Shown here: positions 44,750 through 63,866 of the stretch, in pieces | Position numbering within the stretch: the stretch's first letter is position 1 | How the letters are laid out: each line of letters opens with the position of its first letter | Source: Cryobacterium lactosi | Lineage (GTDB): Bacteria; Actinomycetota; Actinomycetes; Actinomycetales; Microbacteriaceae | Assembly (NCBI RefSeq): GCF_004403945.1 | Contig: NZ_SOHM01000022.1 | Span: forward strand, 1-64,000 | Direction: 5' to 3' | DNA: 64,000 bases | Position numbers and translations under genes: made by a program | Notes under the pieces: model-generated | The model's input: only the letters and a program-made list of their open reading frames with translations | Database searches by the model: none | What the model was told of the DNA's origin: nothing

Positions 44750-44754
44750 GCGCG

Positions 44755-48547: not shown

Positions 48548-48569
48548 ACTATCGAAACGTTTCGATAGT
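48548..48569. promoter_or_regulatory. 22-base perfect palindromic LacI operator of the ABC-glycosidase operon
   Basis: All 22 positions are symmetric around CG at 48558-48559; the core is ATCGAAACGTTTCGAT. It lies 55 bases before the binding-protein gene. Confidence 0.85.
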
Positions 48570-48623
48570 TTCCCTCAGCACCACCACGCAGCATCATCCG
48601 CATCACTACAAGGAAGTAGAACA

Positions 48624-49919
48624 GTGAAGAAAACCAAGAGAAGCCTCGCCGGGATCGCCATGCTCGGCGTCAGCGCCCTCCTGCTCTCCGGCTGCTCCGC
48701 CGGAGCCGGCGAAGCCGACAGCAATACCCTCAAGCTCTGGCACTTCGAGAGCGACACCAGTGCCATGGGCATCGCGTGGGAGGAAGCCATCAAGGTCTTC
48801 GAAGAAGAGACCGGCGCGACCGTGGAATTCGAGGAGAAGAGCTTCGAACAGATCCGCTCCACGGCCAGCCAGGTGCTCAACTCCAACGAGGCCCCCGACA
48901 TCCTCGAGTACAACAAGGGCAACGCCACCGCCGGCCTCCTGGCCAGCCAGGGCCTGCTCAGCGACCTGGACGACGACTACGCGGAGTACGGCTGGGACGA
49001 CGCCCTCGCCCCGTCGCTGCAGACCACGGCGCGCTACGACGAAGACGGCATCATGGGCTCCGGCGCGTTCTACGGTGTGCCCAACTACGGCGAGTTCGTG
49101 GAGATGTACTACAACAAGGACATGTTCGCCGCCGCCGGCCTTGAGGTGCCGACCACCGTCGCCGAACTCGAGACCGTCATGAAGGCGTTCACCGACCAGG
49201 GCATCACCCCGCTGGCCGAATCGGCCGCCGAGTACCCGCTGGGCCAGCTCTGGTACCAGCTCGCACTCACCAAGGCCGACCGCAGCTTCGTCGACGACTA
49301 CCAGCTCTACACCGGCGACGTCGACTGGAGCGGCCCGGAGGTGACCTACGCGACCGAGACCATCAAGGACTGGACCGACGCCGGCTACATCTCCACCGAC
49401 GCCAGCGGCTTCAAGGCAGAGGATGCCGGCACCGCGTTCATCAACGGCACCTACCCGATCTTCTACTCGGGCTCCTGGTGGCACAACCGGTTCACCACCG
49501 AGGCCACCGGCTTCGAGTGGGGAACCTTCCTCTTCCCCGAGGCCGAGATGTCGCCAGGTTCCGCCGGCAACATGTGGGTCATCCCGGAGAAGGCCAAGAA
49601 CAAGGACCTCGCCGCCCAGTTCATCGACATCACCATGCGCCCGGAGATCCAGGCCCTGATCGGTAACAACGGAGGCATCCCCGTCGCCGCTGACACCTCC
49701 GACATCACGGATGCGAAGAGCCAGGAACTGATCGGCAACTTCAACACCCTGACCGAGCGCGACGGCATCGCCTTCTACCCGGACTGGCCCACCGCGACGT
49801 TCTACGACGAGCTGAACGCCGGCCTGCAGGAACTCATCAACGGCAGCAAGTCGCCCGCTGAGATCAACGAGCAGCTCGGCGGACAGTACACGTCCGGCGT
49901 AGACGACATCGTCGGCTAA
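48624..49919 (+). CDS. Sugar ABC transporter substrate-binding lipoprotein, xyloglucan-type system
   Basis: A 431-residue family 1 binding protein with basic start (MKKTKRSLAG by GTG), lipobox LSGC and mature sequence NTLKLWHFESDTSAMGIAWE. Hinge and ligand regions such as FYGVPNYGEFVEMYYNKDMF and YSGSWWHNRF are aromatic-rich, as in oligosaccharide-binding members. GTG 48624 has AAGGAAG seven bases upstream. It begins the operon that continues with two permeases and the GH31, GH1, GH42 and GH95 enzymes, so it most likely binds xyloglucan-derived oligosaccharides. A strong hairpin follows. Confidence 0.92.
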   Translation: MKKTKRSLAGIAMLGVSALLLSGCSAGAGEADSNTLKLWHFESDTSAMGIAWEEAIKVFEEETGATVEFEEKSFEQIRSTASQVLNSNEAPDILEYNKGNATAGLLASQGLLSDLDDDYAEYGWDDALAPSLQTTARYDEDGIMGSGAFYGVPNYGEFVEMYYNKDMFAAAGLEVPTTVAELETVMKAFTDQGITPLAESAAEYPLGQLWYQLALTKADRSFVDDYQLYTGDVDWSGPEVTYATETIKDWTDAGYISTDASGFKAEDAGTAFINGTYPIFYSGSWWHNRFTTEATGFEWGTFLFPEAEMSPGSAGNMWVIPEKAKNKDLAAQFIDITMRPEIQALIGNNGGIPVAADTSDITDAKSQELIGNFNTLTERDGIAFYPDWPTATFYDELNAGLQELINGSKSPAEINEQLGGQYTSGVDDIVG

Positions 49920-49954
49920 CTCCGCCGCCGCACCAACATCACCTCGCAGTACCC

Positions 49955-49981
49955 GGCCGGGGGCTGTCACGGCCCCCGGCC
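49955..49981 (+). terminator. Perfect hairpin after the binding-protein gene
   Basis: GGCCGGGGGC (49955-49964) pairs with GCCCCCGGCC (49972-49981) around a seven-base loop, 35 bases past the stop and 24 bases before the permease start. Confidence 0.75.
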
Positions 49982-50005
49982 ACCACTGAAAGAGAAGGAA
50001 ACAGC

Positions 50006-50983
50006 ATGACGACAGCATCCGTAGCCGATGCCCCCGTTGATGCTCCCGCGGCAGGCAACAGGCCCGTGCGGCAGAGCCTCATCCCGGGAAGCAATCCCAA
50101 GACATTCTGGATCTACCTGATCCCGGGCCTCGCGCTGCTCACACTGATCATCGTGGTTCCCCTGGTGTGGAACATCTACCTCACCTTCACCGACTACCGC
50201 GGCATCAAGCCGCCGGAGTGGGTGGGCCTGGAGAACTGGGTGAAGCTGGCAGGCGACACCACCTTCTGGACCTCGTTCAGCAACTCCATCGCGATGATCG
50301 TGGCCATGGTCGTCGTGCCCACCCTCCTCGGCCTGGTGCTCGCCGCCATGCTGTTCGACCTGATCGGCAAGAAGTTCGGCGGCAAGATCGCCAGCTTCCT
50401 GCGCGCCACCTACTACCTGCCGCAGATCCTGCCCGGCGTTGTCGCAGCGATCGTGATCGGCTGGATCCTGCGCCCGCAGAACGGCGCGCTCAACCAGGTG
50501 CTCGAGGGCATCGGACTGGGCGGCCTGGCGCAGAACTGGCTCGGCAATCCCGACACCGCGCTGCCCAGCATCATGGTCATCATGATCTGGGTGCAGCTCG
50601 GCTACCCCATCGTGATCTTCATGGCCGCCCTGCAGCGGGTCGACCCCGAACTCTACGAGGCCGCTGAGCTCGACGGCGCCAACTGGATCCAGCGCTTCCG
50701 GGCGATCACGGTGAGCATCATCCGCCCCGAGATCTTCGTGGTCACCCTCACCTGCACCATCGCCGCCCTCAAGGTGTTCGGCCCGATCTACACCCTCACC
50801 GGCGGCGGTCCGGGCACCTCCACCATCGTGCCCGCATACTACGCCTACAGCGAGTTCTTCCAGTCCCAGCAGGTGGGCTACGGCGCCACCATAGCCACCG
50901 CACTCACCATCGTCATCGCGGCCGTTTCGGTCGTCTTCCTGCTCGCCCAGACCCGACTCGAGCGCCAGGAAGAGGAACGCTAA
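50006..50983 (+). CDS. Sugar ABC transporter permease (MalF-type), xyloglucan-type system
   Basis: A 325-residue permease with six helices (first: FWIYLIPGLALLTLIIVVPLVW) and EAA loop PELYEAAELDGANWIQRFRA. The GGGPGTSTIVPAYYAYSEFF segment is typical of MalF-type partners. AGAGAAGG precedes the ATG. Its TAA shares one base with the ATG of the next gene. It forms the channel with the 50983 product for the oligosaccharides handled by the downstream glycosidases; the ATPase must be supplied from elsewhere. Confidence 0.92.
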   Translation: MTTASVADAPVDAPAAGNRPVRQSLIPGSNPKTFWIYLIPGLALLTLIIVVPLVWNIYLTFTDYRGIKPPEWVGLENWVKLAGDTTFWTSFSNSIAMIVAMVVVPTLLGLVLAAMLFDLIGKKFGGKIASFLRATYYLPQILPGVVAAIVIGWILRPQNGALNQVLEGIGLGGLAQNWLGNPDTALPSIMVIMIWVQLGYPIVIFMAALQRVDPELYEAAELDGANWIQRFRAITVSIIRPEIFVVTLTCTIAALKVFGPIYTLTGGGPGTSTIVPAYYAYSEFFQSQQVGYGATIATALTIVIAAVSVVFLLAQTRLERQEEER

Positions 50984-51891
50984 TGACCTCCACCATCCTC
51001 GACCCGGCCCCGGCAACCGTCACAGGCCCGCCGGCCCGGCAGAGCCGCAAACGCCGCAGCAGCACCACCCGCAAGACCCTCGGCGACTGGATGATCCTGC
51101 TTGTCGCGGTCCTGATCGGCTTGCTCATCGCGGTGCCGTTCTTCCTCATCCTGATCAACTCGTTCAAATCGCCCGCCGACTACAACCAGGCCGGCCCGCT
51201 CACCCTGCCCACCAGCCTGTACTTCGACGGCATGATCAACTTCTGGGAGCGGGTGAACTTCCCAGGCAAGCTCTGGAACAGCTTCTTCATCTCCAGCGTC
51301 GTCGCGATCCTGGCCGTGGTCATCTCCCTGCTGAACGCGTTCGCGCTCGGCATCGGCCGGGTGCGCGGTCGCACCTGGATCGTGCTGCTGATCCTGCTGG
51401 CCAACATGCTGCCGCAGGAGGTGCTGCTCTACCCGCTCTACTTCATGTTCAAGACCGTGGGGCTGTACGACAACCAGTGGGCCGTGATCATCATCTTCGT
51501 GGTCATCCAGAGCGCTTTCGGCACCTACCTGCTGGCCAGCGTGCTGGGCACGTTCCCCAAGGAGATCCTCGAGGCGGCGTCGCTGGACGGCGCCAGCCGC
51601 TGGACGATCCTGTACCGCGTGGTCTACCCGATCACCAAGCCCACCCTGAGCGTGCTGGTGATCTTCTTCTTCATCTGGACCTGGAACGAGTTCCTGATCC
51701 CGCTCACCTTCCTGGTCAGCAACGCGAGCCAGACCGTGCCGGTCTCGATCGCCGTGCTGCAGGGCGACCGGCTGATGGATGTCACCACGACCAGCGCCTC
51801 GGCGCTTCTGGGCCTGCTGCCCACCCTGATCTTCTTCCTCATTTTCCAACGCACCCTCACCAGGGGCATCACCGCAGGAGCAGTCAAGTAG
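50983..51891 (+). CDS. Sugar ABC transporter permease (MalG-type), xyloglucan-type system
   Basis: A 302-residue permease with a charged 30-residue N-terminus, six helices and EAA loop KEILEAASLDGASRWTILYR. The tail FQRTLTRGITAGAVK is the normal MalG-type end. It is coupled to the preceding permease by TAATG, and the alpha-xylosidase ATG follows only two bases after its stop, so transporter and glycosidases are one transcript. Confidence 0.92.
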   Translation: MTSTILDPAPATVTGPPARQSRKRRSSTTRKTLGDWMILLVAVLIGLLIAVPFFLILINSFKSPADYNQAGPLTLPTSLYFDGMINFWERVNFPGKLWNSFFISSVVAILAVVISLLNAFALGIGRVRGRTWIVLLILLANMLPQEVLLYPLYFMFKTVGLYDNQWAVIIIFVVIQSAFGTYLLASVLGTFPKEILEAASLDGASRWTILYRVVYPITKPTLSVLVIFFFIWTWNEFLIPLTFLVSNASQTVPVSIAVLQGDRLMDVTTTSASALLGLLPTLIFFLIFQRTLTRGITAGAVK

Positions 51892-51893
51892 AT

Positions 51894-54230
51894 ATGAAAT
51901 TCACCGATGGTTTCTGGCACACCCGCCCCGGCGTCACCGCGCTCTACGCGCAGGAGGCGTACGACGTCGAACAGCTCGGCAGTGCACTGCGGGTGACTGC
52001 GCCGACGAAGGTGATCGAACGCCGCGGCGACGTGCTCAACCGGGCGGTGCTCACCGTCACGCTCACCTCCCCGCTGGAGGGCATCATCAAGGTGCGTGTC
52101 GAACAGCACACCGGTACCGCGGCAGGCCCGGGCTTCGACCTGGTCGGCGCCGAACCGGATGCCGGCGCCATCGTGATCGACAACACCGGCGGTACCCTCA
52201 CGGCCGGCCCGCTCACCGCCCGCGTGGCGCTGGGCGCCCCGTTCTCTCTCGCGTTCGAGACGGATGGCCGCACCCTCACCGAGAGCGGCCACAAGTCGAT
52301 CGGGCACATGCAGCTCGCCCCCGGCGCTCCCGTCGCCGCCGAACCGGCCGGGGTGTCCGGCGTCACGACCACTGGGCTCGCCCCGGCCGCCTCCTACACG
52401 CACGCGCAGCTGTCCCTCGGTGTGGGCGAACTGGTCTACGGCCTCGGCGAGCGCTTCGGCCCGCTGATCAAGAACGGCCAGACGATCGACATCTGGAACG
52501 CCGACGGCGGCACCTCCAGTGAGCAGTCCTACAAGAACGTGCCGTTCTACCTCACCAACCGCGGCTACGGCGTGCTGGTCAACCACCCGGAGCACGTCTC
52601 GTTCGAGGTGGGCACCGAGGCCGTCGAGCGGGTGCAGTTCTCCGTGGCCGGACCGGTCATCGAGTACCTGGTGATCTACGGCCCCACCCCCAAGGACGTG
52701 CTCGAGCGCTACACCCGGCTCACCGGCCGACCGGCGCGGGTGCCGGCCTGGTCGTACGGCCTGTGGCTGTCGACCTCGTTCACCACCCAGTACGACGAGG
52801 CCACCGTCAACAGCTTCATCGACGGCATGGCCGAGCGTGATCTGCCGCTGTCGGTGTTCCACTTCGACTGCTTCTGGATGCGCGAATTCAACTGGACCGA
52901 CTTCGAGTGGGACCCGCGGGTGTTCCCGGACCCCGAGGGCATGCTCGCCCGCCTGCACGAGAAGAACCTGCACGTGAGCGCCTGGATCAACCCGTACATC
53001 GCCCAGCGGGCCGGCATCTTCGCCGAGGCCGCCGCGGCCGGTTACCTGGTCAAGAGGGCCAACGGCGACGTCTGGCAGTGGGACTTCTGGCAGGCCGGCA
53101 TGGGCCTGGTCGATTTCACCAACCCGGCCGCCGTCACCTGGTTCCAGAACAAGCTGCGCGGTCTCTTCGCCCAGGGCGTCGACGCCATCAAGACCGACTT
53201 CGGCGAACGCATCCCCACGGATGTGGTGTGGCACGACGGATCATCGGCCGACGTGATGCACAACCTCTACAGCCAGCTCTACAACAAGGCCGTCTTCGAG
53301 GTGCTGCAGGAACACCGCGGCGAGGGCGACGCGGTGCTGTTCGCCCGGTCCGCCACTGTCGGCGGCCAGATGCAACCCGTGCACTGGGGCGGAGACAACT
53401 CCTCCAGCTACGAGTCGATGGCCGAGACCCTGCGCGGCGGGCTCAGCCTGGCGTTTTCCGGCTTCGGCTACTGGAGCCACGACATCGGCGGCTTCGAGGG
53501 CATGCCGGACCCGGCCGTGTTCAAGCGCTGGCTGGCGTTCGGGCTGCTGTCCAGCCACTCCAGGCTGCACGGCTCCACCAGCTACCGGGTGCCGTGGCTG
53601 TTCGACGACGGCCGGGAAGAGCCCGGCCAGAGCGCCGTGGACGTCACCCGGGTCTTCACCAAGCTCAAGCTCGCGCTGATGCCCTATCTCTTCCAGGTGG
53701 GCCTGGAGGCGCACGCCAGCGGGGCCCCGTTCATGCGGCCGATGCAGCTCGAGTTCCCCGATGACCCCGCGGTGGACTACCTGGACCGGCAGTACCTGCT
53801 CGGCAGCGACCTGCTCGTGGCCCCGGTGTTCAGCGAGGCCGGCGACGTGCAGTACTACCTGCCGGCGGGAACCTGGACGAACTACCTGACCGACGAGGTC
53901 GTCACCGGCCCCGTCTGGCGCCGGGAGACCCACGCCTTCGACAGCATCCCGCTGTGGGTGCGCGGGGGAGCGGTGCTGGCCACAGGATCCCGCGACGACC
54001 GACCCGACTACGACTACACCGACGAGCCCCTCATCACCGTCTACCCCGGCGGCACCGGCGAGGTGCGTTCCGTCGACATCGCCAACCCCCTCGACGGCAG
54101 CCACATCACCGTCACCATCACCGTCTCCGGCGACGACACCGTCGTGACCAGCGATTCGGATGCGCCCTTCCGGGCCCGTCTCGCCGGTGCCGAACCCGTT
54201 GATTCCACCGACCGAAAGGCCACAGTCTGA
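51894..54230 (+). CDS. yicI: GH31 alpha-xylosidase (YicI-like)
   Basis: A 778-residue cytosolic GH31 enzyme. Nucleophile Asp435 lies in [11 protein letters not shown] and acid/base Asp501 in [31 protein letters not shown] and [16 protein letters not shown] match E. coli YicI, the reference alpha-xylosidase, almost word for word, and the length agrees (772 there). It would remove alpha-1,6-xylose from the non-reducing end of xyloglucan oligosaccharides (isoprimeverose units). Its ribosome binding site is weak (AGGAG about 13 bases away), so translation is probably coupled to the permease two bases upstream. The stop overlaps the GH1 start (TGATG). Confidence 0.96.
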
Positions 54231-55702
54231 TGACCACCGGCACCACCTCCATCGCTACGCCCGTCGTGACCGCGGGCACCGCCGACTACCGGGACGCCGG
54301 CCTGGTCTTCCCCGAATCGTTCGTCTTCGGCTCCGCAACGGCCAGTTACCAGATCGAGGGCGCCTTCGACGAGGACGGCCGCGGCCCCTCGATCTGGGAT
54401 ACCTTCAGCCACACCCCCGGCAAGATCTGGAACGGCGACACCGGCGACGTCGCCTCCGGTCACTACCACCGGCTCGAGCAGGACCTGGACCTGATGGTGA
54501 CCCTGGGCCTGCAGGCCTACAGGTTCTCGATCGCCTGGTCGCGCATCCAGCCCACCGGACGGGGCCCGGCCAACCGGGCGGGCCTGGACTTCTACGGTCG
54601 CGTGATCGACGGGCTCCTCGCTCGGGGCATCCGCCCCATCGTCACCCTCTACCACTGGGACCTGCCGCAGGCCCTCGAGGACGAGGGCGGCTGGACCAAC
54701 CGGGCCACCGCCTACGCGTTCGCGGACTACGCCGCCAATCTGGGGCGCGAGTTCGGCGACCGGGTGCACACCTGGACCACGCTGAACGAACCGTGGTGCT
54801 CCGCCTACCTGGGTTACGGTTCGGGCTCCCACGCGCCCGGCCGCACCGACGGCGCCGAGGCGCTCACAGCCGTGCACCACCTCAACCTGGCGCACGGCCT
54901 GGCGATCCTGGCGCTGAAGCCGCTGGTGACCAACGACCCCGACTTCTCGATCACCCTCAACCTTCACGTGCTGCGCGGCGACGGCGAGACCGGCCCGGAG
55001 GCCGTGCGGCAGATCGACGCCCTCGCCAACCGGGTGTTCCTGGGACCGCTGCTCACCGGCGCCTACCCGGCGGATGTCTTCGAAGACACCAAGGACGTCA
55101 CCGACTGGGCGTTCATCCTGCCCGGCGACACCGAGATCATCCACCAGCCGCTGGACGTACTCGGCGTCAACTACTACTCCACCACGCTGGTGCGGTTGTG
55201 GGACGGCACGGCGCCCAGGCAGAACGCCGACGGTCACAAAGACGTCGGAGCCTCACCCTGGCCCGGCGCCGACCGGGTGGAGTTCCTGCCCCAACCCGGC
55301 CCGTACACCGAGATGGGCTGGAACATCGAACCGGCCGGTCTCGAGGAGCTGCTCGTGGCCCTGCACGAGGAATACCCGGAGCAGCCGCTGATGGTCACCG
55401 AGAACGGTGCGGCGTTCGCCGACACCGTGGTGCAGACGGATGCCGGCCCCCGCGTGCACGACGTGGAGCGCACCGACTACCTGCGCCGGCACTTCACCGC
55501 CGCGCACCGGGCCATGGCCCGCGGGGTCGACCTCCGCGGCTACCAGGTGTGGTCGCTGATGGACAACTTCGAGTGGGGCTACGGCTACTCCAAGCGCTTC
55601 GGCATCATCCACGTGGACTACGCATCCCTGGAGCGAACTCTCAAGGACAGCGCCCACTGGTATGCCGCCCTGGTAGCCACCCGCACCCTCCCCCTCCCTT
55701 AA
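54230..55702 (+). CDS. GH1 beta-glucosidase
   Basis: A 490-residue cytosolic GH1 enzyme with acid/base Glu187 in TTLNEPWCS and nucleophile Glu391 in MVTENGAAF. Further family motifs: [52 protein letters not shown] and [18 protein letters not shown]. The last is typical of beta-glucosidases with broad beta-glucoside/galactoside activity. It should split glucosyl residues exposed after xylose removal by the adjoining GH31. Start coupled to GH31; a two-tier hairpin follows. Confidence 0.95.
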
Positions 55703-55715
55703 CCCACGCACCAGC

Positions 55716-55778
55716 CCGCGAACTGTGACTTAAGCACCTCAAATCCCGATTTTTCGGGGCTTAGCTCACGGTTCGCGG
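55716..55778. repeat. Two-tier hairpin between GH1 and GH42
   Basis: Outer arm CCGCGAACTGTGACTTAAGC (55716-55735) pairs with 55759-55778 at 17 of 20 positions. Inside is CCCGA-tttt-TCGGG (55745-55758). It sits within the operon and may tune expression of the downstream genes. Confidence 0.75.
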
Positions 55779-55797
55779 CAAGTAGGACGGATTTACC

Positions 55798-57825
55798 TTG
55801 AAAGCGCAAGCGCACGAGTTCGTATACGGCGGGGACTACAACCCCGAACAATGGGATGAGTCGGTGTGGGCGGAGGACGTGCGCCTGATGCGTGAGGCGC
55901 ACGTCAACCGGGTCACCGTCGGGGTGTTCTCCTGGTCGTCGCTCGAGCCCGAAGAAGGCCGGTACGACTTCGGCTGGCTCGACCGGGTGATGGACCTCAT
56001 GCACACCAACGGGATCGGGGTGGTGCTGGCCACCCCCACCGCGTCGCCGCCGCCGTGGTTCACCTTCGCCCACCCCGAGGCGCTCCCGGTCACCGCGAAT
56101 GGCGTGCGGCTTGTGCACGGCAGCCGGGACACCTACAACCCGGCCGCTCCGGCCTACCGCGCGGCCGCACGGCGGATCGCCGGCGCCCTCGCCGAACGGT
56201 ACGGCCGGCATCCGGCGCTCACCATGTGGCACGTGCACAACGAATACGGCACGGTGTCCTACGGTGCAGAGACGGACCGGGCGTTCAGACTGTGGCTGGC
56301 CGGGCGCTACGGCACCGTGGCCACGCTGAACCACACCTGGAACAGCGCCTTCTGGTCGCAGAGCTACTCCACCTTCGAGCACATCTTGGCGCCCCAGGCC
56401 ACGCAGTACCTGCCGAACCCGGCGCACGTGCTCGACTTCAAGCGGTTCTCCGCCGACACCCTGCGCGATGCGTTGCGCGACCAGGTCACGGTCATCCGCG
56501 AGCTCAGTCCCGGGGTGCCGGTCACGACCAACTTCATGCTGCCCAGCTGGAACCACTACGACCAATGGGACTTCGCCGCGGAGATCGACGAGGTGTCGAT
56601 CGACCACTATCCCAGCGCCCGTGACATCGAGGGAGAGACCCACGTGGCGTTCGGCGCCGACGTGGCCCGCTCGTTCAACCGGGGCCGACCCTGGGTGCTG
56701 ATGGAGCAGGCCACCAGCCTGATCTACGACTACTCCGCAGCCCGGCTGTTCGCCAAGGACCCCGGCAGGCTCGAGCGAAACACCCTGCAGTACCTGGCCA
56801 GGGGCTCCACCGGGAGCCTGTTCTTCCAGTGGCGCTCGCCCCGGGTCGGCGCGGAGTTCTTCCACTCGCCGATGGTGCCGCACGCGGGAGAGGACTCCAG
56901 AGTCTTCCGCGAGATCGTCGCCCTCGGCCATACTCTCAGCGCCCTCGCCGAGATCGCCGAACCGCCCGCGGCCGGCCACCGGGTCAACGATGCCCGGGTC
57001 GCCATCGTCTGGGACTCCACCGCCTGGTGGGCCGCCGAGACCCGCGCCATGCCCTCAGACGACCTGGCCTTCCTGCCCGCGATCCGGGCGGTGCACCGGG
57101 CGCTCTGGTGGCAGGGCATCACCTGCGATGTGGTGCGCCTGGACCAGGACCTCTCCGGCTACGACCTGGTGCTGGTGCCGAACAAGATCGCCGCCTCCGA
57201 CGCCGAAGCCGATGTCCTGCGCGCTTTCGTGGAGGCCGGCGGCCACGCGGCGGTCTGGTTCTTCGCCGGCAGCACCGACGAGAACCTCAACGTGCGCCCC
57301 GGCGGCTTCAGCGGCGCCTTCGCGCCGCTGGCGGGCATCCGCGTCGAAGAGCACCACCCGCTCGCCGCCGACGAGACCATCGAGCTCTCCGACGGGTCGC
57401 GGGCGGAGGCCTGGGCCGAGGACCTGCAGGCCAGGGGCGCCGAGGTGCTGGCCACCTTCACCCACGCCCCGCTGACCGGGGGAGCGGCGATCACCCGCAA
57501 CCGGCTCGGCGCCGGCACCGTGCACTACTTCGCCACCCGCCTCGACCACGACGCGTTGCGCGCACACCTGGCGCGCATCCTCGCCGAAGCCGGCGTGGGC
57601 CCTGAACACCCACAGGCCGGTGACGGGGTCGAAATCGTGCGCCGTCACGCCGGCACCCGCAGCTACCTCTTCGTCTTCAACCACGGAGAGCGCCCACGCA
57701 CGGTCGCCCTGAACGGCTATGACCTGCTCACCGGCGCGCACCTCACCGGCGACATCGAGCTGGCTCCGGCCGCCTCGTTCGTTCTCCGCGAGGATGCCCT
57801 GCCGGCCGTCCCGCTCCACCCCTGA
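55798..57825 (+). CDS. GH42 beta-galactosidase, copy 2
   Basis: A 675-residue cytosolic GH42 enzyme. Start motif FVYGGDYNPEQWDESVW, acid/base Glu149 in WHVHNEYGTV, nucleophile Glu303 in LMEQATSLIYDYS, and FFQWRSPRVGAEFFHSPMVPH. TTG at 55798 is the only start in frame ahead of the conserved first strand, with AGGA upstream, so initiation may be weak. Unlike copy 1 it has no Gly/Ser-rich insertion. In this operon it would take off the beta-galactose of xyloglucan side chains after defucosylation, before the alpha-xylosidase can act. Confidence 0.94.
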   Translation: MKAQAHEFVYGGDYNPEQWDESVWAEDVRLMREAHVNRVTVGVFSWSSLEPEEGRYDFGWLDRVMDLMHTNGIGVVLATPTASPPPWFTFAHPEALPVTANGVRLVHGSRDTYNPAAPAYRAAARRIAGALAERYGRHPALTMWHVHNEYGTVSYGAETDRAFRLWLAGRYGTVATLNHTWNSAFWSQSYSTFEHILAPQATQYLPNPAHVLDFKRFSADTLRDALRDQVTVIRELSPGVPVTTNFMLPSWNHYDQWDFAAEIDEVSIDHYPSARDIEGETHVAFGADVARSFNRGRPWVLMEQATSLIYDYSAARLFAKDPGRLERNTLQYLARGSTGSLFFQWRSPRVGAEFFHSPMVPHAGEDSRVFREIVALGHTLSALAEIAEPPAAGHRVNDARVAIVWDSTAWWAAETRAMPSDDLAFLPAIRAVHRALWWQGITCDVVRLDQDLSGYDLVLVPNKIAASDAEADVLRAFVEAGGHAAVWFFAGSTDENLNVRPGGFSGAFAPLAGIRVEEHHPLAADETIELSDGSRAEAWAEDLQARGAEVLATFTHAPLTGGAAITRNRLGAGTVHYFATRLDHDALRAHLARILAEAGVGPEHPQAGDGVEIVRRHAGTRSYLFVFNHGERPRTVALNGYDLLTGAHLTGDIELAPAASFVLREDALPAVPLHP

Positions 57826-57898
57826 CCCGGCCGACGCGGTTCTCAAGCCGAACCGCACGGCACTGCCGTACCCCGTGGCCAACCCAGAAAGGATGCCG

Positions 57899-58030
57899 AT
57901 GACGGCCTTCGCGCGGTCGGCGATGCCGATGGAGCTGCTCGAGGCCGCCAGGCTCAACGGGGCCAGCGAGTGGCGCGCGGTCTTCTCGATCGCCCTCAAA
58001 CTGCTCAGCCCCGGCGGGGTGCGGTTCTGA
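57899..58030 (+). pseudogene. Remnant of a MalG-type ABC permease (EAA loop only)
   Basis: A 43-codon ORF whose product contains MPMELLEAARLNGASEWRA, followed by VFSIALKLLSPGGV. This is the EAA loop of a sugar ABC permease and the start of the following helix; the rest of the gene is gone. It still has a usable AAAGGA before ATG 57899. It ends three bases before the GH95 ATG, so it may now serve as a short coupling ORF for that gene. A deletion probably removed a second transporter between GH42 and GH95. Confidence 0.7.
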
Positions 58031-58032
58031 GC

Positions 58033-60381
58033 ATGAGCAGACTGCACTACCGCACGGCAAGCGACGGCTGGCTCGACGCGTTGCCGCTCGGCAATGGGCG
58101 CATCGGTGCCATGGTCGAAGCCACGGACCTGTGCACCCTGGTGCACCTGAACGACGAGACCGCCTGGTCGGGGTCGGTCGCAAGTGAACACCACGGCGGC
58201 CGGGTGGATGCCGCCACCGCCGCATCCGCCCTGGCCGCCGCCCGCGACCTGATCGAGAATGACCGACCGGTCGAGGCGGAACGGGAACTCGCCGCTCTCA
58301 CCGCCGAATACAGTCAGGCCTACCTGCCGTTCGGCCGGCTGCAGATCACCCTGCCGGCCGGCCACGCGGTCTCCGAGCGGTGGCTGGACCTGGCCACCGC
58401 CACCCACCACATCCGCGGCACGGGCATCGATCAGACCAGTTTCGTCAGTGCCGCCGACGGGGTGCTCGTGCACAGGCTCACGGCCACGGGCCCCGCCGGC
58501 GTCGATGTGACGGTCGCCGTGAGCACGCCGCTGCACGAACTGGCCAGGACCATCGACGACACCGGCCTGACCGTGCGGTTGCGGCTGCCGGCGGATGTCG
58601 CCCCCGGCCACCGCCCCGACCGTGCCGCACTCGTGTGGGACTCCGACGGCATCACCCCGGTGCAGGGCGCGCTGACGGTGTCGATCCGGCACGACGGGCG
58701 GCTCGAACCGGGCGGTGATGGGGCCCTGAGGGTGGTCGGCGCGAGCGAGGTCGTGGTCCTGGTGGCCACGGACACCACCTTCGTGGGCCTGGGGTGTGCG
58801 CCGGCGGGCACCGCCGACAACGCGGCGGAGCGCTCCCGAAACCGGATCGACGGCCTCGCGCCGCTGTCGGTGGCCGAGCTGGCCGCCAGGCACCGGCGTG
58901 ACCACGGTGCCCTCTACGACCGGGTCTCGCTGCAGCTGACCGGGCCGTCCGACCGGGCCGGCCTGCCCACCGCTGAGCGTCTCAGCGAGGCCGCCGCCGC
59001 CCGGATTCCCGCCGCGGAAGCCGACCCCGGACTGGTGGCGCTGCTCTTCGACTACGGCCGGTACCTGCTCATCGCCTCCTCCAGACCCGCCGGCCTCCCG
59101 GCCACGCTGCAGGGCCTCTGGAACGCGTCAATGCGGCCGCCGTGGAGCAGCAACTACACCCTGAACATCAACACCGAGATGAACTATTGGGCGGCCCAGG
59201 TTGTGCAACTCGACGACACGGCCCTGCCCCTGCTCGACCTCGTGGAGGCCCTGGCCGCCCGCGGTGCGGAAACGGCGGAGCGGCTCTACGGCTGCCGGGG
59301 CTGGGTGGCCCACCACAACTCGGATGCCTGGGCGTTCAGCTCACCCGTGACCGGCGACGCCTCCTGGGCCCAATGGCCGATGGCCGGACCGTGGCTGGTG
59401 CGTCAACTCGACGAGCCCCGCCGCTTCGGCACGGCCGACGCCGGCTACCTGGCCCGGCTGTGGCCGGTCGCGGCCGGATGCGCGCGCTTCTGCCTCGATT
59501 TTGCCATCGCCCTGCCCGACGGTCGCCTGGGCACCCGGCCGTCGACGTCGCCGGAGAACCGCTACCGCCGCGGCCAGGCCGGCGTCGCCGTCGGAACCGC
59601 CTCCGGCATGGACCGGACACTGCTGCGCGAGCTCTTCACCCTGCTGCCGGCGCTGGCCGCCGACTCCGGGCACGCCGACGATCCGGTCCTGGCCGAGGTT
59701 GCCGCCGCCCTGGACCGCATCGACGGGGTGCGTATCGACGCCGACGGCCGGGTGGCCGAGTGGGGCCTCGACGAGGTGGAGGACGACCCTGGGCACCGGC
59801 ACCTCTCCCACCTCGTCGGCCTGTACCCGGGTGACGGCCTGCCCGCAGCCCAACACGCCGCGGTCGGCGCCACCCTCGACCGGCGCGGCGACGACTCGAC
59901 CGGCTGGTCCCTGGTCTGGAAGCTCTGCCTGCGCGCCAGGCTCGGCCAGGCCGGCAGGGTGGGCGACCTGCTCGGCTACGTGCTGAGGCCGGCCGGCACC
60001 GAATCCGGCGCGCACGCCGGCGGCCTCTATCCCAACTTCTTCGCGGCGCATCCGCCGTTTCAGATCGACGGGAACCTGGGTTTCGTCGCGGCGATTGCCG
60101 AATGCCTCGTGCAGTCCCACACCGACGTCATCGACCTGCTGCCGGCGCTGCCGCCGGGGCTGGAGAACGGCCGGGTGACCGGCCTGGCGGTGCGCGGCGG
60201 TCTGCTCGTCGACCTCGACTGGGCAGACGGCGAGGTCGTGACGGCCGTGTTCACCGCGCGGCCGGGCACCCGGGCCGGCAGTCGCCTGGTGCGTGTGGCC
60301 CGGCCGGGCGGGGCCGCGACCATCGTCGAGATCCGCGTGCGGCCGGGCCGGCCCACCCGCGTGGACCGGCCCGGCCGCTGA
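58033..60381 (+). CDS. GH95 alpha-L-fucosidase
   Basis: A 782-residue cytosolic GH95 enzyme. N-terminal domain with LPLGNGRIGAMV and LNDETAWSG; helical barrel with LPATLQGLWN, PPWSSNYTLNINTEMNYW, WVAHHNSDAWAF, TSPENRYRRG and FQIDGNLG. By comparison with bifidobacterial AfcA, Glu508 (TSPEN), Asn378, Asn380 and Asp679 (QIDGN) fill the catalytic positions of this inverting family. It would release alpha-1,2-linked L-fucose from fucosylated xyloglucan side chains. GH95 also includes alpha-L-galactosidases, which remains an alternative. The start follows the permease remnant by two bases. Confidence 0.92.
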   Translation: MSRLHYRTASDGWLDALPLGNGRIGAMVEATDLCTLVHLNDETAWSGSVASEHHGGRVDAATAASALAAARDLIENDRPVEAERELAALTAEYSQAYLPFGRLQITLPAGHAVSERWLDLATATHHIRGTGIDQTSFVSAADGVLVHRLTATGPAGVDVTVAVSTPLHELARTIDDTGLTVRLRLPADVAPGHRPDRAALVWDSDGITPVQGALTVSIRHDGRLEPGGDGALRVVGASEVVVLVATDTTFVGLGCAPAGTADNAAERSRNRIDGLAPLSVAELAARHRRDHGALYDRVSLQLTGPSDRAGLPTAERLSEAAAARIPAAEADPGLVALLFDYGRYLLIASSRPAGLPATLQGLWNASMRPPWSSNYTLNINTEMNYWAAQVVQLDDTALPLLDLVEALAARGAETAERLYGCRGWVAHHNSDAWAFSSPVTGDASWAQWPMAGPWLVRQLDEPRRFGTADAGYLARLWPVAAGCARFCLDFAIALPDGRLGTRPSTSPENRYRRGQAGVAVGTASGMDRTLLRELFTLLPALAADSGHADDPVLAEVAAALDRIDGVRIDADGRVAEWGLDEVEDDPGHRHLSHLVGLYPGDGLPAAQHAAVGATLDRRGDDSTGWSLVWKLCLRARLGQAGRVGDLLGYVLRPAGTESGAHAGGLYPNFFAAHPPFQIDGNLGFVAAIAECLVQSHTDVIDLLPALPPGLENGRVTGLAVRGGLLVDLDWADGEVVTAVFTARPGTRAGSRLVRVARPGGAATIVEIRVRPGRPTRVDRPGR

Positions 60382-60392
60382 CCATCCCCATC

Positions 60393-60455
60393 CCGCGAGA
60401 GCGGCGAAGTGGCTGCTTCATTGGTGCCGAAGCAGCCACATGGCCGCTTTCGCGG
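60393..60455. repeat. Two-tier hairpin after GH95
   Basis: Outer arm CCGCGAGAGCGGC (60393-60405) with 60443-60455 (12 of 13), inner arm TGGCTGCTTC (60410-60419) with GAAGCAGCCA (60429-60438), nine-base loop. It lies between the convergent GH95 and tatA genes and could terminate both. Confidence 0.8.
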
Positions 60456-60476
60456 AAGGGTGGCGGTGGGGGGAAA

Positions 60477-60674
60477 TCAGGCCGGCGGTTTGGCCGTGCC
60501 CGCGGGATCCGCCGGATCGGCCGGGTGGTCGTCGGAGGGGGACAGCTCGGTCTTCAGGATCTTCATCGACTGCCCCAGGCTGCGCGCCAGGGTGGGCAGC
60601 TTGGGCGCGCCGAAGAGCAGGAGCACGACGAAGAGGATGATGAGGAAATGCCATCCGGTCAAGTTGCTGAGCAT
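60477..60674 (-). CDS. tatA: Twin-arginine translocase subunit TatA
   Basis: A 65-residue protein: short N-terminus, one membrane helix (WHFLIILFVVLLLFGAPKLP), hinge, amphipathic helix (LPTLARSLGQSMKILKTEL) and an acidic Pro/Asp-rich tail. This is the TatA/E pore-forming subunit for export of folded proteins. The FGAPKLP hinge is the standard FGxxKLP. AGGA lies six bases before the ATG. No tatB or tatC is adjacent. A Tat-type lipoprotein gene begins 3.2 kb away (63867). Confidence 0.92.
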   Translation of the reverse strand: MLSNLTGWHFLIILFVVLLLFGAPKLPTLARSLGQSMKILKTELSPSDDHPADPADPAGTAKPPA

Positions 60675-60740
60675 GATGTCCTGTCTTGTCGGTGGTGCCG
60701 ATGGAGCGGAAGATAACCGTGCGAATCGCAGAGCCGGTCG

Positions 60741-63638
60741 TTACGAGGAGGCCTGGACGGCGGTGGGGGAGTCCCCGCCGATGACGGCGAGCTGCACCCC
60801 GCGGGGCAGCGTCACGCGGAGGTCGGCCGTGCCGGGGCGGGACCCCGCGGCATCGAACCGGACCAGCACGGCGCTCCAGGCCGGCGACGTGACGTCGGCG
60901 CTGCCCAGTACAGACCAGAGACCGCCCCGGCGGCACTCAAGATCGATCCGGCCGGCGCCTCGGGTCTCGAGCCGGAGCGTGCCGGCCAGTGCCCCGAGAT
61001 CCACGTCGAGATAGACCAGCCGGGCGCACCGTGCGGTGGGCGCGACGGCCACCGCCGTGCCGACCAGCGGCGAGTAGACCACCAGTTCGCTGCCCACCGA
61101 GGCGCTGGCGCCGGTTTCGTCGAAACTGTCGGCGCCGAACCCCGCCACCGGATCGCGCGGGGCGACCGTGGCGCCGTCCACGTGCAGCACCAGCGTGTGT
61201 TCGATGGCCTCGGCCGACTGCCCGACGAGCACCTCGTAGTCCCCGGACTCCACGATCAGGCGCCCCGTGGTCACGTCCCAGACCGTCAGGGCGGCCGGAT
61301 CGAGGGTGATGGTCAATTCCGCGCTTTCGCCCGCGGCCACTCGCACCCGGCCGAACCCGGCCAGGCGACGGCGGGGGAACGGAAGCCGGTGCGCGGGTGC
61401 GCTCACGTAGAGCTGCACGGTCGCGACGGCCGCACGAGCCGGCCTGCCGGGGTCCGCGGCACCGGCCACGGTGACCGTGACGGTGACCGGATGCGCCGGC
61501 CCGGCTTCGCCCGTCCAGCTCAGCCGGGACTCGGCCAGGGTCGCGGCCGGCACCGTGGCACGCGCATAGCCGAGTCCGTGGCCGAAGGGGAAGTCGGGTT
61601 CGGCCGTGGAGTAGAGGTAGGTGCTGCGGCTGGTGATGATGTCGTAGTCGAGCACGCCGGCGAGGTCGGCTTCGCCGGCCCACCAGGTCTGGGCGAGCCG
61701 GCCGGTGGGTTCGACCGCGCCGGTGAGCACGTCGGCCAGGCCGTGGCCCAGTTGTTCTCCGGCATGTGAGGACCACACGATGGCGGGCGCCTTCTCGATG
61801 GCCGCTCCGAGGGCGAACGGATACGACGAGATGACCAGCAGGACCACGTTGTTGTTGGCGTCGGCGACGGTGCTGACCAGTTCGGCCTGGTGACCCGGCA
61901 GGGCGAGCACCGGCCGGTCTTCGGTCTCCCGTCCGCCCAGGTGGGGGTCGTTGCCCACCGTCACGATCACGGTGTCGGCCTCCGCTGCCACCGCCGCCGC
62001 GTGGGCGAGACCGGATCGCAGGACCCGCAGCCCGAACCTGTCGGCGGTGGCCTCGGTGGCCGGTACGGCCAGGATCGACCCGTTGCCGAGGTCCGCGTGC
62101 AGCCACAGGCCGGAGCCGCGGTGCTGCACCGACACACTGCCGTCGTCGTGACGCAGCAGACGCAAAGCCTCCTGCGCCACCCAGCCGCCCACCCGGGTGG
62201 CGGTGTCCTCGAGGTAGCCGTGCGGACCGCGGGTGACCAGGCGGTCGCTGGCGATGTTGCGCAGCGTGGCGTGGCCGTGGCCCCACTCGGTGAGCTCGAA
62301 GGTCTGTGCGTCGCCGACGGTGTCGCTCGCGGCGTGCACGCGCCCGCCGGTCGCGCCGCCGGAGGTGAGGTACCGGCCGGTGCGCGGATCGCGGAGCGCG
62401 ATGAGGTCGCTGCCGCTGGCGACGGTGACGCTGCCACCGGATGCGCCGAGCGCATCCGCCAGGCCGTCGCTGAGGCTCACCGGGGCGATCAGGCTGCCGC
62501 TGTACCAGTCGGTGAGCACCCGGTCGGCGAGCGGGCCGAGCACGGCTACCCGCGTGGCCGGCGCCAGCGGCAGGAGGGGAAGGCCCCGGGTGGGATCGTT
62601 CTTCAGGAGCACGGTGCCCGCGGCCACGGCCTGCCTGGCCAGGTCGATGTGGGCCGGTGAACCGATGACGTCGGCCGTGACGGAGGCGTACGGATGCGGC
62701 TCCGTGTCGAACTCACCGGTGCGCGCACGCGCCGTCAATAGGCGGAGCACCGCGGCATCCACCTGCCCGATGTTGATGAGACCGTCGGCGAGGGCGTGCC
62801 GCAGGGCGGAGATCGTGGGCTCGGCATTGGTGTCGTTGTCGGTGAAGCTGTCCACGCCGGCGGCGAGGGCCGCGGCGTGGGCGGCCACCGGCCCGTCGAA
62901 GAACTCCTCAGACCCGAACAGGTTGCTGGGCGCGGCCGCATCGCTCACGATGAGCAGCTCGGCGCTGTCGGCGACCCAGCTGCGCAGGTGCGTCGCCACG
63001 AGGTCGGACACATGGGCCGGGCGGCCGTTGACCAGGTTGTAGGAGAGCATGGCCGCGCCGGCCGCGCCCTCCTCGATGGCCGGGCGGTAGGCCGGCAGTT
63101 CATACTCGTGCAGCACCCGCTGGCGCAGCTGGGAGTTGGTCGTGGAGCGGTCGACCTCGTTGTTGTAGCCGAGGAAATGCTTGAGGGTGGGCACCGTGCG
63201 CCAGCGCACCGGGTCGGTGCCGCGCAAACCCCAGGAGTAGGCGCAGCCCATCCGGCCGGTGAGCAAGGAGTCCTCGGAATAACCCTCCTCGTTGCGTCCC
63301 CAGAGCGGATGCCGCAGCGGATTCACCACCGGCGCCCACACGTTCAGGCTCACCTCGGGGGAGTCGGCGTGCTTGCCGCGCACCTCGGTGCCCACGGCCT
63401 CGCCGACCCGGCGGATCAGATCGAGATCCCAGGAGGCGGCCAGTCCGACGGCCTGCGGGAACTGGGTGGCCTCGCCCAGCCAGGACAGTCCGTGCAGGGC
63501 CTCGGTGCCGGTGTGGAAGGCGGCGAGCCCTAGCCGTTCGATGGCCGGATTGGCCTGATGCAGCAGGCTGAGCTTCTCCTCGACCGTGAGCTGGTCGAGC
63601 AGGCGGAGTGCCGTTGCGGCGTCGGTGCCGTGCGTCAT
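60741..63638 (-). CDS. GH3 beta-glucosidase with an internal beta-trefoil-like insertion
   Basis: A 965-residue cytosolic GH3 enzyme. The barrel carries the nucleophile Asp233 in LLIVSDAAAP and LKHFLGYNNEVDRS; the (alpha/beta)6 domain follows (ATRVAVLGPLADRVL, VIVTVGNDPHLGGRETEDRP), then a fibronectin-III-like domain and a C-terminal jelly-roll-like region. Between about 405 and 540 sits an extra domain reading LRDPRTGRYLTSGG, ATLRNIASDRLVTRGPHG and SVQHRGSGLWLHADLGNG, with the spacing of a fascin/ricin-like beta-trefoil, a possible sugar-binding module. ATG 63638 is used. The LacI palindrome 21 bases upstream ties it to the xyloglucan-type regulon. Confidence 0.9.
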   Translation of the reverse strand: MTHGTDAATALRLLDQLTVEEKLSLLHQANPAIERLGLAAFHTGTEALHGLSWLGEATQFPQAVGLAASWDLDLIRRVGEAVGTEVRGKHADSPEVSLNVWAPVVNPLRHPLWGRNEEGYSEDSLLTGRMGCAYSWGLRGTDPVRWRTVPTLKHFLGYNNEVDRSTTNSQLRQRVLHEYELPAYRPAIEEGAAGAAMLSYNLVNGRPAHVSDLVATHLRSWVADSAELLIVSDAAAPSNLFGSEEFFDGPVAAHAAALAAGVDSFTDNDTNAEPTISALRHALADGLINIGQVDAAVLRLLTARARTGEFDTEPHPYASVTADVIGSPAHIDLARQAVAAGTVLLKNDPTRGLPLLPLAPATRVAVLGPLADRVLTDWYSGSLIAPVSLSDGLADALGASGGSVTVASGSDLIALRDPRTGRYLTSGGATGGRVHAASDTVGDAQTFELTEWGHGHATLRNIASDRLVTRGPHGYLEDTATRVGGWVAQEALRLLRHDDGSVSVQHRGSGLWLHADLGNGSILAVPATEATADRFGLRVLRSGLAHAAAVAAEADTVIVTVGNDPHLGGRETEDRPVLALPGHQAELVSTVADANNNVVLLVISSYPFALGAAIEKAPAIVWSSHAGEQLGHGLADVLTGAVEPTGRLAQTWWAGEADLAGVLDYDIITSRSTYLYSTAEPDFPFGHGLGYARATVPAATLAESRLSWTGEAGPAHPVTVTVTVAGAADPGRPARAAVATVQLYVSAPAHRLPFPRRRLAGFGRVRVAAGESAELTITLDPAALTVWDVTTGRLIVESGDYEVLVGQSAEAIEHTLVLHVDGATVAPRDPVAGFGADSFDETGASASVGSELVVYSPLVGTAVAVAPTARCARLVYLDVDLGALAGTLRLETRGAGRIDLECRRGGLWSVLGSADVTSPAWSAVLVRFDAAGSRPGTADLRVTLPRGVQLAVIGGDSPTAVQASS

Positions 63639-63658
63639 CAAAAACTTCCCGATTGAAG

Positions 63659-63682
63659 AACTATCGAAGCGTTTCGATAGTT
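63659..63682. promoter_or_regulatory. LacI operator of the GH3 gene
   Basis: A 24-base palindrome with a single mismatch, core ATCGAAGCGTTTCGAT, differing from the 48548 site by one base in the shared part. Confidence 0.82.
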
Positions 63683-63773
63683 GTCGTAAAAACTACGTCG
63701 ACGTGCCGAGTCTAGGTGACACTCTGCGATTTGTGGTTGCATCCGCGTAATTCGGCCCTGTACACTCCCGATT

Positions 63774-63789: not shown

Positions 63790-63866
63790 AGGGAGCCGGA
63801 CTCGGGGGCGCATCGTGCTGCTCACGGCCTCGGCAAGCAACGCAACTTACGAAGAAGTGAGGCAGC

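What the first reader, a model, noticed from the sequence alone, without database searches (positions are those of the whole stretch)
48548..63682. A cytosolic fucosylated-xyloglucan oligosaccharide pathway in one regulon
One operon couples a CUT1 importer to GH31 alpha-xylosidase, GH1 beta-glucosidase, GH42 beta-galactosidase and GH95 alpha-fucosidase, and a separate GH3 gene carries the same operator. Seen: catalytic motifs and absence of signal peptides. Known: these families release, in turn, the Fuc, Gal, Xyl and Glc of XXFG-type oligosaccharides. Inference: import of intact fucosylated oligomers and stepwise cytosolic breakdown in an actinobacterium. No endo-xyloglucanase is in the window, so the cell may scavenge fragments made by others.
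Basis: partly seen in the sequence, partly recalled or inferred. Interest (0 to 1): 0.8.

Follow-up and report, generated by a model that had tools for sequence, protein, structure and literature searches.

The report
Importer and debrancher for xyloglucan fragments
A probable actinobacterium carries a tightly co-regulated gene set that most likely imports short fragments of the plant-wall polymer xyloglucan and takes them apart inside the cell; the principle is known from other Gram-positive bacteria, but here it is built from different parts and with a second importer next door.

Summary
Window 47498-63680 carries lacI, a CUT1 importer with no ATPase gene beside it, GH31 (YicI-type alpha-xylosidase, NCBIfam 1144 bits, cut-off 606), GH1, GH42, GH95 and a separate GH3; none of these five hydrolases shows a signal peptide. 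The operator is real: its 14-bp core TCGAARCGYTTCGA occurs exactly twice in the 4.66-Mb genome. Among 40 orthologous loci it lies upstream of the binding-protein gene (0-1 mismatch) in 26 of 26 that hold the LacI; the other 14 have no site better than 4 mismatches.

A cytosolic xyloglucan-oligosaccharide pathway is the best reading, but importer 1 is not shown to be a fucosylated-oligomer importer: GH31 accompanies it in 40 of 40 loci, GH42 in 1, GH95 in none. GH42, GH95, GH3 and a second importer with its own LacI (63867-68569, past the window end) fill a 13.9-kb block absent from a congener. Importer 2 accompanies the full enzyme set in Occultella and is the better candidate for large decorated oligomers. 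L-fucose isomerase was not found; endo-xyloglucanase families were tested only in part. The principle is in print for Firmicutes and predicted for Bifidobacterium: a new variant of a known kind. No activity was measured.

The parts
47498..48511 (+). LacI-family regulator (LacI1)
   Evidence: Pfam LacI + Peripla_BP_3; start ATG MANIHDVA; orthologs co-occur with the operator in 26 of 26 loci
47414..47433 (.). weaker operator-like site 65 bp upstream of lacI1, possible autoregulation (inference)
   Evidence: 2 mismatches to TCGAARCGYTTCGA
48549..48568 (.). operator 1, perfect 20-bp palindrome upstream of the importer-1 operon
48624..49919 (+). solute-binding protein of importer 1 (SBP1), lipoprotein-like N-terminus
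   Evidence: SBP_bac_8 104.8 bits; N-terminus; the 7 solved matches at E<=1e-10 are 407-456-residue SBPs
50006..50983 (+). CUT1 permease A
   Evidence: BPD_transp_1
50983..51891 (+). CUT1 permease B
   Evidence: BPD_transp_1
51894..54230 (+). GH31 alpha-xylosidase, YicI type
   Evidence: NCBIfam PRK10658 alpha-xylosidase 1143.8 bits, cut-off 606; 864.5 bits to YicI 8t7z with motifs [18 protein letters not shown] and HWGGD aligned
54230..55702 (+). GH1 beta-glucosidase
   Evidence: TIGR03356 567.4 bits, cut-off 478.5; 1gnx 617.8 bits
55798..57825 (+). GH42 beta-galactosidase-like
   Evidence: Glyco_hydro_42, 42M, 42C; matches to solved beta-galactosidases
57970..60381 (+). GH95, probable alpha-1,2-L-fucosidase (start 57970 or 58033)
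   Evidence: Glyco_hydro_95_cat 438 bits; NYTLNIN, SPEN, FQIDGN motifs
60741..63641 (-). GH3 hydrolase with an inserted stretch in its C-terminal domain
   Evidence: Pfam GH3 N, C and Fn3-like; activity not resolved: best NCBIfam 338 bits, cut-off 1250
63661..63680 (.). operator 2, in the divergent GH3/SBP2 promoter region
   Evidence: one mismatch to operator 1
63772..63791 (.). degenerate operator-like site close to SBP2
   Evidence: 2 mismatches to the core
63867..64000 (+). start of SBP2, binding protein of importer 2; continues to contig C27:65519, followed by permeases 65529-66524 and 66521-67453 and LacI2 67478-68569
41672..41691 (.). weak operator-like site between xylA and chvE; relation to the regulon unproven
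   Evidence: 2 mismatches, intergenic; no such site near xylA in 12 of 17 relatives
40319..41509 (-). xylose isomerase (neighbouring xylose module)
   Evidence: TIGR02631 661.4 bits, cut-off 447
41457..45972 (+). ChvE-GguA-GguB-type monosaccharide ABC importer (ORF bounds; ChvE itself starts at about 41988)
   Evidence: NCBIfam cut-offs met for all three

Best explanation
This is a LacI-controlled regulon for taking up and degrading xyloglucan oligosaccharides. Importer 1 (48624-51891) brings in alpha-xylosylated glucans, from isoprimeverose to short oligomers. Importer 2 (63867-67453, mostly beyond the window) brings in larger, galactosylated and fucosylated ones. Both would be energised by a shared MsiK-type ATPase encoded elsewhere. 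In the cytosol GH95 removes L-fucose, GH42 removes galactose, and GH31 with GH1 (and perhaps GH3) strip xylose and glucose in turn; xylose enters the xylose isomerase pathway next door. A sugar inducer releases LacI1/LacI2 from the operators. The conserved older part is LacI-importer 1-GH31; a 13.9-kb block carrying GH42, GH95, GH3, importer 2 and LacI2 was added behind GH1 in this lineage. Shown by sequence: gene families, absence of signal peptides, operator, linkage, synteny. Inferred: substrates, order of cleavage, division of labour between importers, inducer, and that the block was gained here rather than lost elsewhere.
For: Families and cut-offs; GH31 YicI-type; GH95 catalytic motifs (residues from passages); no signal peptides; two operator cores in the genome; operator with 0-1 mismatch in 26 of 26 loci with LacI, best site 4-6 mismatches in 14 of 14 without; GH31 with importer 1 in 40 of 40 loci, xylose isomerase in 17 of 40; AXE1-type esterase cluster in 11 of 40 loci (cluster c2, one member named) and in L117 and L121; GH31+GH42+GH95 together in L117, L118, L121, L103, L134, L128; congener without the block; importer-2 homologs and divergent GH3 in Occultella; operator-like sites in promoter regions of L103 and L134; one OB_MalK ATPase in the genome.
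Against: No activity or binding data. GH3 and GH42 reach no function-specific NCBIfam cut-off. L-fucose isomerase (PF02952) was not found. GH95 has a YicI-type GH31 nearby in only 5 of 20 family regions and 4 of 80 named loci, so GH95 alone does not mean xyloglucan. With SBP2 alone as query the best solved matches are ordinary small sugar SBPs and AlgQ1 only reaches E=0.0011. Structure models were too poor to use. Two sites in L128 are not beyond chance. A secreted E1-like GH5 endocellulase exists, so the cell may cut some fragments itself. Importer 2 was found beside the full set in only one other locus of the 140 compared.
Confidence: 0.7

Rival explanations
1. One reading: the 48624 importer itself takes up intact fucosylated oligomers (XXFG), and GH3 is a lone satellite of the regulon.
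For: GH95 and GH42 lie in the same gene run as importer 1; one ortholog locus (L149, 83% SBP identity) has a GH42 between PermB and GH31.
Against: 0 of 40 ortholog loci have GH95 within the fetched stretch; importer-2 homologs, and no importer 1, stand beside the full enzyme set in Occultella; operator 2 sits between GH3 and SBP2.
Confidence: 0.2
2. Importer 1 takes only isoprimeverose or similar small alpha-xylosides; GH42, GH95, GH3 and importer 2 serve a different fucosylated or galactosylated plant glycan under a shared regulator.
For: The importer-1 core mostly lacks GH42 and GH95 in relatives; GH95 occurs mostly without GH31; GH3 is nearest to beta-xylosidase/arabinosidase-type models and structures.
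Against: GH31, GH42 and GH95 occur together in six other loci, in L128 as one run GH31-GH42-GH95; the operator cores in this genome lie only before these genes.
Confidence: 0.18
3. GH95 is an alpha-L-galactosidase acting on L-galactose-bearing xyloglucan or xylan.
For: Thr at the position discussed in PMC4491172 (motif NYTLNIN); the L-galactosidase 4ufc matches with 363.7 bits, about as well as 7kmq with 358.9 bits.
Against: XacAfc95 has Thr there and is specific for L-fucose (PMC8245568, passages); L-Gal is uncommon in xyloglucan (recalled).
Confidence: 0.07

Closest known systems
Ruminiclostridium cellulolyticum xyloglucan-oligosaccharide uptake locus (Ccel_2451-2458; PMC4780118)
   Same: ABC importer (SBP plus two permeases), cytosolic GH31, GH42 and GH3, stepwise intracellular degradation; the Fig. 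12 legend mentions alpha-fucosidase genes in the clusters compared there
   Different: There a two-component system instead of LacI and cellulosomal endo-xyloglucanases; GH95 not part of the characterised set. Here LacI operators, GH1, GH95 in the gene run, a second importer, and no match in the endo-xyloglucanase families that could be tested
Bifidobacterium XG-1 islands of marmoset isolates, B. myosotis and B. hapali (PMC8406136, passages)
   Same: Actinobacteria; predicted islands with beta-glucosidase, alpha-xylosidase and alpha-fucosidase genes for xyloglucan
   Different: Gene families, importer and regulation of XG-1 were not seen here (Fig. S3 is a supplement); prediction only
Anaerocellum (Caldicellulosiruptor) bescii Athe_2052-2054 xyloglucan ABC transporter (PMC12710961, PDB 9PMY)
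   Same: CUT1 importer beside a GH31 alpha-xylosidase; a profile of four SBP2-type sequences ranks AlgQ1, AlgQ2 and related SBPs first, the group to which the paper assigns Athe_2052
   Different: SBP1 (431 residues) has no match to 9PMY at E<=1e-10; the SBP2-type profile does not list 9PMY at E<=0.001
Xanthomonas XyGUL (PMC8245568, passages)
   Same: GH31 and GH95 with a beta-galactosidase, next to xylose isomerase and xylulokinase genes
   Different: TonB-dependent transporters, GH74, GH35 and CE20; Gram-negative envelope
Occultella glacieicola cluster (L103, NZ_SMNA01000003.1)
   Same: GH1, GH31, GH42, GH95, LacI, importer-2 homologs and divergent GH3, with operator-like sites in the two divergent promoter regions
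   Different: No importer-1 match above the other importer in the 22-kb locus; not characterised as far as seen

Membership tests
Gram-positive xyloglucan-oligosaccharide uptake locus (Ravachol type) | ABC importer (SBP plus two permeases) next to the hydrolase genes | tested here: met
Gram-positive xyloglucan-oligosaccharide uptake locus (Ravachol type) | GH31 alpha-xylosidase without signal peptide | tested here: met
   NCBIfam cut-off exceeded; N-terminus
Gram-positive xyloglucan-oligosaccharide uptake locus (Ravachol type) | cytosolic beta-galactosidase (GH42) and beta-glucosidase (GH3 or GH1) | tested here: met
   family level only; activities not tested
Gram-positive xyloglucan-oligosaccharide uptake locus (Ravachol type) | binding protein binds XXXG-type oligosaccharides | not testable with these tools
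   needs a binding assay; models unusable
Gram-positive xyloglucan-oligosaccharide uptake locus (Ravachol type) | two-component regulator in the cluster (stated for the Fig. 12a clusters; not taken here as defining) | tested here: not met
   LacI1 and LacI2 instead
Gram-positive xyloglucan-oligosaccharide uptake locus (Ravachol type) | extracellular endo-xyloglucanase in the genome (part of the full pathway, not of the locus) | tested here: inconclusive
   no GH12, GH9 or PF15902 stand-in for GH74; GH44 search rang in no control; GH16 not tested; secreted E1-like GH5 present
YicI-type GH31 alpha-xylosidase | NCBIfam PRK10658 cut-off and catalytic Asp motifs | tested here: met
   1143.8 vs 606 bits; [11 protein letters not shown] and HWGGD aligned to 8t7z (their catalytic role is recalled)
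GH95 alpha-1,2-L-fucosidase | GH95 catalytic domain with the Asn pair, general acid Glu and conserved Asp | tested here: met
   residues from passages
GH95 alpha-1,2-L-fucosidase | L-fucose rather than L-galactose specificity | not testable with these tools
   the Thr397 position does not decide it (PMC8245568)
Gram-negative XyGUL | TonB-dependent transporter and GH74 in the locus | tested here: not met
   CUT1 importer in the locus; no PF15902 match in the genome
LacI regulon with operator TCGAARCGYTTCGA | operator co-occurs with the regulator ortholog | tested here: met
   26 of 26 with LacI (0-1 mismatch), 0 of 14 without (best 4-6 mismatches)

The most novel reading that the evidence does not exclude
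An alpha-xyloside uptake core common in this bacterial family (LacI, importer 1, GH31) was turned in one lineage into a two-importer, two-repressor regulon for fucosylated xyloglucan fragments, by insertion of a 13.9-kb block whose genes carry the matching operator; importer 1 takes small xylosides, importer 2 large decorated oligomers, and the cell lives largely on fragments cut by others, possibly giving L-fucose back to the community because no L-fucose isomerase was found.
Probability: 0.38. Interest if true: 0.55.

Novelty: new variant of a known kind. Interest (0 to 1): 0.4.

Why it matters
Import of fucosylated xyloglucan oligomers by a Gram-positive ABC transporter was left open for R. 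cellulolyticum (PMC4780118, Discussion). This locus offers a defined operator, two candidate binding proteins and a complete enzyme set in which the question can be tested. The operator plus the LacI-SBP-PermA-PermB-GH31 core could serve as a genomic marker for alpha-xyloside use in this family, and the block looks like a catabolic regulon growing by adding genes under an existing operator code.

Tried and rejected
Rejected: (a) importer 1 as a dedicated fucosylated-oligomer importer. (b) The genes at 31199-34307 as an L-fucose oxidation route: the best models are galactarate dehydratase (below cut-off) and 5-dehydro-4-deoxyglucarate dehydratase types. (c) The two GH29 loci as a source of fucose catabolism genes: of the neighbours scanned, only an aldo-keto reductase beside one of them was a candidate, and it was not identified further. 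(d) Assigning GH95 to L-fucose or L-galactose by the Thr/His position: published counter-example. (e) Assigning SBP2 to an SBP group by structure: model pLDDT 56.6, Foldseek mixes small and large SBPs. By sequence the results differ: SBP2 alone ranks small SBPs first; a profile of 4 sequences (A3, two of them only 21-22% identical to SBP2) ranks AlgQ1, AlgQ2 and other large SBPs first; the larger profile A2 ranks 9PMY first, but 21 of its 24 rows were reached only by iteration, so I do not lean on it. (f) SBP1 model pLDDT 39.8, unusable. I lowered interest from 0.45 to 0.4, confidence from 0.72 to 0.70 and the novel case from 0.40 to 0.38 for this and. The draft also placed the site at 41672 in coding sequence; it is intergenic.

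Not useful: promoter/terminator consensus scan (no promoter; 6 terminators against 5.4 expected); GH44 genome search (no control rang).

Taken only in part: 40 of the 55 other genomes with SBP1 identity of 55% or more in the list; 20 GH95 regions from 16 of the 37 other genomes with a match. The layout part stopped with an error after five loci; adjacency and presence counts come from tblastn, and the only count taken is its cluster table.
Full report
What is there. The window is G000:C27:1-64000 of a 4.66-Mb, 53-contig genome, GC 69.6%. Pfam and NCBIfam give, in order on the + strand: LacI regulator (47498-48511), SBP1 (48624-49919), two permeases (50006-50983, 50983-51891), GH31 (51894-54230), GH1 (54230-55702), GH42 (55798-57825), GH95 (57970-60381); and on the - strand GH3 (60741-63641). 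GH31 exceeds the NCBIfam alpha-xylosidase cut-off (1143.8 vs 606 bits) and aligns with YicI (8t7z) at 864.5 bits. GH1 exceeds the beta-glucosidase cut-off. GH95 keeps the Asn pair (NYTLNIN), the acid Glu (SPEN) and the Asp (QIDGN) (residues as given in PMC10154630, PMC4491172 and PMC8245568, passages). GH42 and GH3 reach no function-specific cut-off. None of the five hydrolases has a hydrophobic N-terminus.

The regulon. Operator 1 is a perfect 20-bp palindrome at 48549; operator 2 differs by one base at 63661. Within 3 mismatches these are the only sites in the genome, and the 14-bp core TCGAARCGYTTCGA also gives only these. To test whether the site belongs to the LacI, I fetched 40 loci around SBP1 orthologs from the same family (59-83% identity), out of 55 other genomes with at least 55% identity. 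A site with 0-1 mismatch to the core lies within about 320 bp upstream of the SBP gene in 26 of 26 loci that hold a LacI match above 150 bits; in the other 14 the best site has 4-6 mismatches (first seen with a stricter filter). In 5 of the 26 the lacI gene is downstream of the operon, so the match is not a by-product of lacI being adjacent. Sites with up to 2 mismatches number 6 in the window against 0.53 expected (40 first-order Markov simulations, maximum 3): the two operators, one upstream of lacI1 (47414), one upstream of SBP2 (63772), one between xylA and chvE (41672) and one inside GH1 (core at 55589). Near the xylA start, 5 of 17 relatives with xylA have such a site (L151, L152, L168, L175, L187) and 12 do not, so control of xylA is doubtful.

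What importer 1 is for. All 40 loci hold PermA, PermB and GH31 with SBP1; the extrapolated GH31 start is within 93 bp of PermB in 39 and after an inserted GH42 in one (L149). A xylose isomerase match is in 17 of 40, GH1 in 9, GH42 in 1, GH95 in 0, and no GH3 match above 200 bits. An AXE1-type esterase cluster (c2) is in 11 of 40 loci by the table, named from one member. The conserved cargo of importer 1 is therefore an alpha-xyloside, with xyloglucan fragments the obvious source; that it takes fucosylated oligomers is not supported by conservation. No ATPase gene is in the operon; the genome has one OB_MalK-type match, as expected for a shared MsiK (role recalled).

The block. The congener G239 (locus L162; 1 of 5 sampled congeners with SBP1) has xylA, ChvE, GguA, LacI, SBP1, PermA, PermB, GH31, GH1 and then, 35 bp on, a ROK gene whose counterpart in the window's genome lies at C27:69608. 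A ROK gene follows GH31 or GH1 directly (-100 to 400 bp) in 13 of 40 loci. In the window's genome 13.9 kb sits at that junction: GH42, GH95, a TatA-like ORF (60480-60674, PF02416 52.6 bits), GH3, and then, mostly beyond the window, SBP2 (63867-65519), two permeases, LacI2 (67478-68569; 58% identical to LacI1; similar recognition helix) and an epimerase-family ORF. SBP2 gives no match above 100 bits in the 40 loci. That the block was inserted rather than lost elsewhere is inferred from the shared order.

Importer 2. SBP2 and its permeases are 50, 68 and 64% identical to those of Occultella glacieicola locus L103, where the cluster reads GH1, GH31, GH42 (-), GH95, LacI (+), permeases and SBP2 (-), GH3 (+). 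Of 140 loci compared, SBP2 matched at E<=1e-12 only there and, weakly (27% over 235 residues), in L112. The three sites with up to 2 mismatches in L103 (0.22 expected, maximum 1 in 100 simulations) lie in its two divergent promoter regions, GH42/GH95 and SBP2/GH3. In L134 three sites (0.38 expected, maximum 2) lie at the GH42/GH95 junction and upstream of a permease match; in L128 two (0.35 expected, maximum 3, so not significant by number) lie between LacI and GH31 and upstream of a permease match. SBP2 alone as query finds ordinary sugar SBPs first and AlgQ1 at E=0.0011. A profile of four SBP2-type sequences ranks AlgQ1, two other large SBPs, AlgQ2 and FusA among its first 13; PMC12710961 (passages) places the xyloglucan-binding Athe_2052 in that group. 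SBP1 matches smaller sugar SBPs. So the large-oligomer role of importer 2 rests on linkage and on a weak profile signal. Structure models did not help. SBP2 has a twin-arginine motif (RRSFL; TAT_signal 18.8 bits, below the cut-off of 22.7).

Recurrence of the enzyme set. GH95 matches (E<=1e-60) are in 38 of 299 family genomes, own genome counted. Of 20 GH95 regions fetched from 16 of them, five hold a YicI-type GH31 (L117, L118, L121, L134, L128); of 80 named GH95 loci (the best 80 of a capped list) four do (L103 and three Paenibacillus: L044, L065, L050). A GH42 match is in all of the first five, and in L103, L044 and L065; L050 ends soon after GH95. In L128 the order is GH31-GH42-GH95. L117, L118 and L121 use yet another importer (permeases 24-28% identical to those of importers 1 and 2) and, in L117 and L121, an AXE1 esterase. 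GH31 and GH1 of L117 are 80-82% identical to the window's, GH95 48% and GH42 45%: the cluster is a mosaic.

What is missing. No GH12 or GH9 was found; PF15902, used as a stand-in for GH74 because it rings in Thermotoga maritima among the controls (that this is its GH74 is recalled), finds nothing; GH44 could not be judged; GH16 was not tested. There is a GH5 with a signal-like N-terminus closest to endocellulase E1 (404.6 bits); the second weak GH5 hit is best matched by 6-phospho-beta-glucosidase models of GH1, just below their cut-offs. L-fucose isomerase C-domain is absent (E. coli rings). Two GH29 genes exist elsewhere.

Comparison with the literature. PMC4780118 (passages, whole Discussion and Fig. 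12 legend) describes ABC import and cytosolic GH42/GH31/GH3 degradation in R. cellulolyticum and comparable clusters in more distant Gram-positives; the legend mentions alpha-fucosidase genes but, in the text held, does not name the organisms. It leaves import of fucosylated oligomers open. PMC12710961 (passages) describes the A. bescii transporter. PMC8406136 (passages) predicts xyloglucan islands with alpha-xylosidase and alpha-fucosidase genes in Bifidobacterium, and PMC6096940 (passages) reports modest growth of B. callitrichos on cranberry xyloglucans; so an actinobacterial precedent exists. PMC8576529 was seen as abstract and outline; PMC4867992, PMC7889515 and PMC10766802 as passages. 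Searches (listings only, open-licence library, of which 71, 102 and 103 returned no paper, and 65 and 70 listed 12 of 25 and 12 of 44) showed no experimental work on such a locus in this family; that does not prove absence.

Verdict. The pathway is the most likely one, but was assigned too simply: two importers, two LacI proteins and a block insertion are involved. It is a new variant of a known kind.

Noticed in passing
   Followed up: yes
60480-60674 (-): TatA-like ORF (PF02416) between GH95 and GH3; SBP2 nearby has a twin-arginine motif.
   Followed up: partly
62007-62459 (-): About 150-residue insertion in the GH3 C-terminal domain that faintly resembles a ricin-type beta-trefoil (E=0.0015, below the Pfam cut-off).
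   Followed up: partly
41672-41691: Weak operator-like site between xylA and chvE.
   Followed up: partly
31199-34307 (-): Enolase-superfamily dehydratase, KdgD-type and NAD-epimerase-family genes in a row; looks like uronate oxidation, inferred.
   Followed up: partly
37417-39939: A second GH42 gene in the window, without a copy of the operator nearby.
   Followed up: no
40319-47247: Xylose isomerase, ChvE-GguAB-type importer and ROK regulator upstream of lacI1; xylA, ChvE and GguA are in the same order in the congener.
   Followed up: yes
L138:2660-10766 (C48): GH42, SBP, ROK and GH29 genes together elsewhere in the genome.
   Followed up: no
L137:1566-11021 (C46): Sucrose phosphorylase, LacI-type genes and an aldo-keto reductase beside a GH29 gene.
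   Followed up: no
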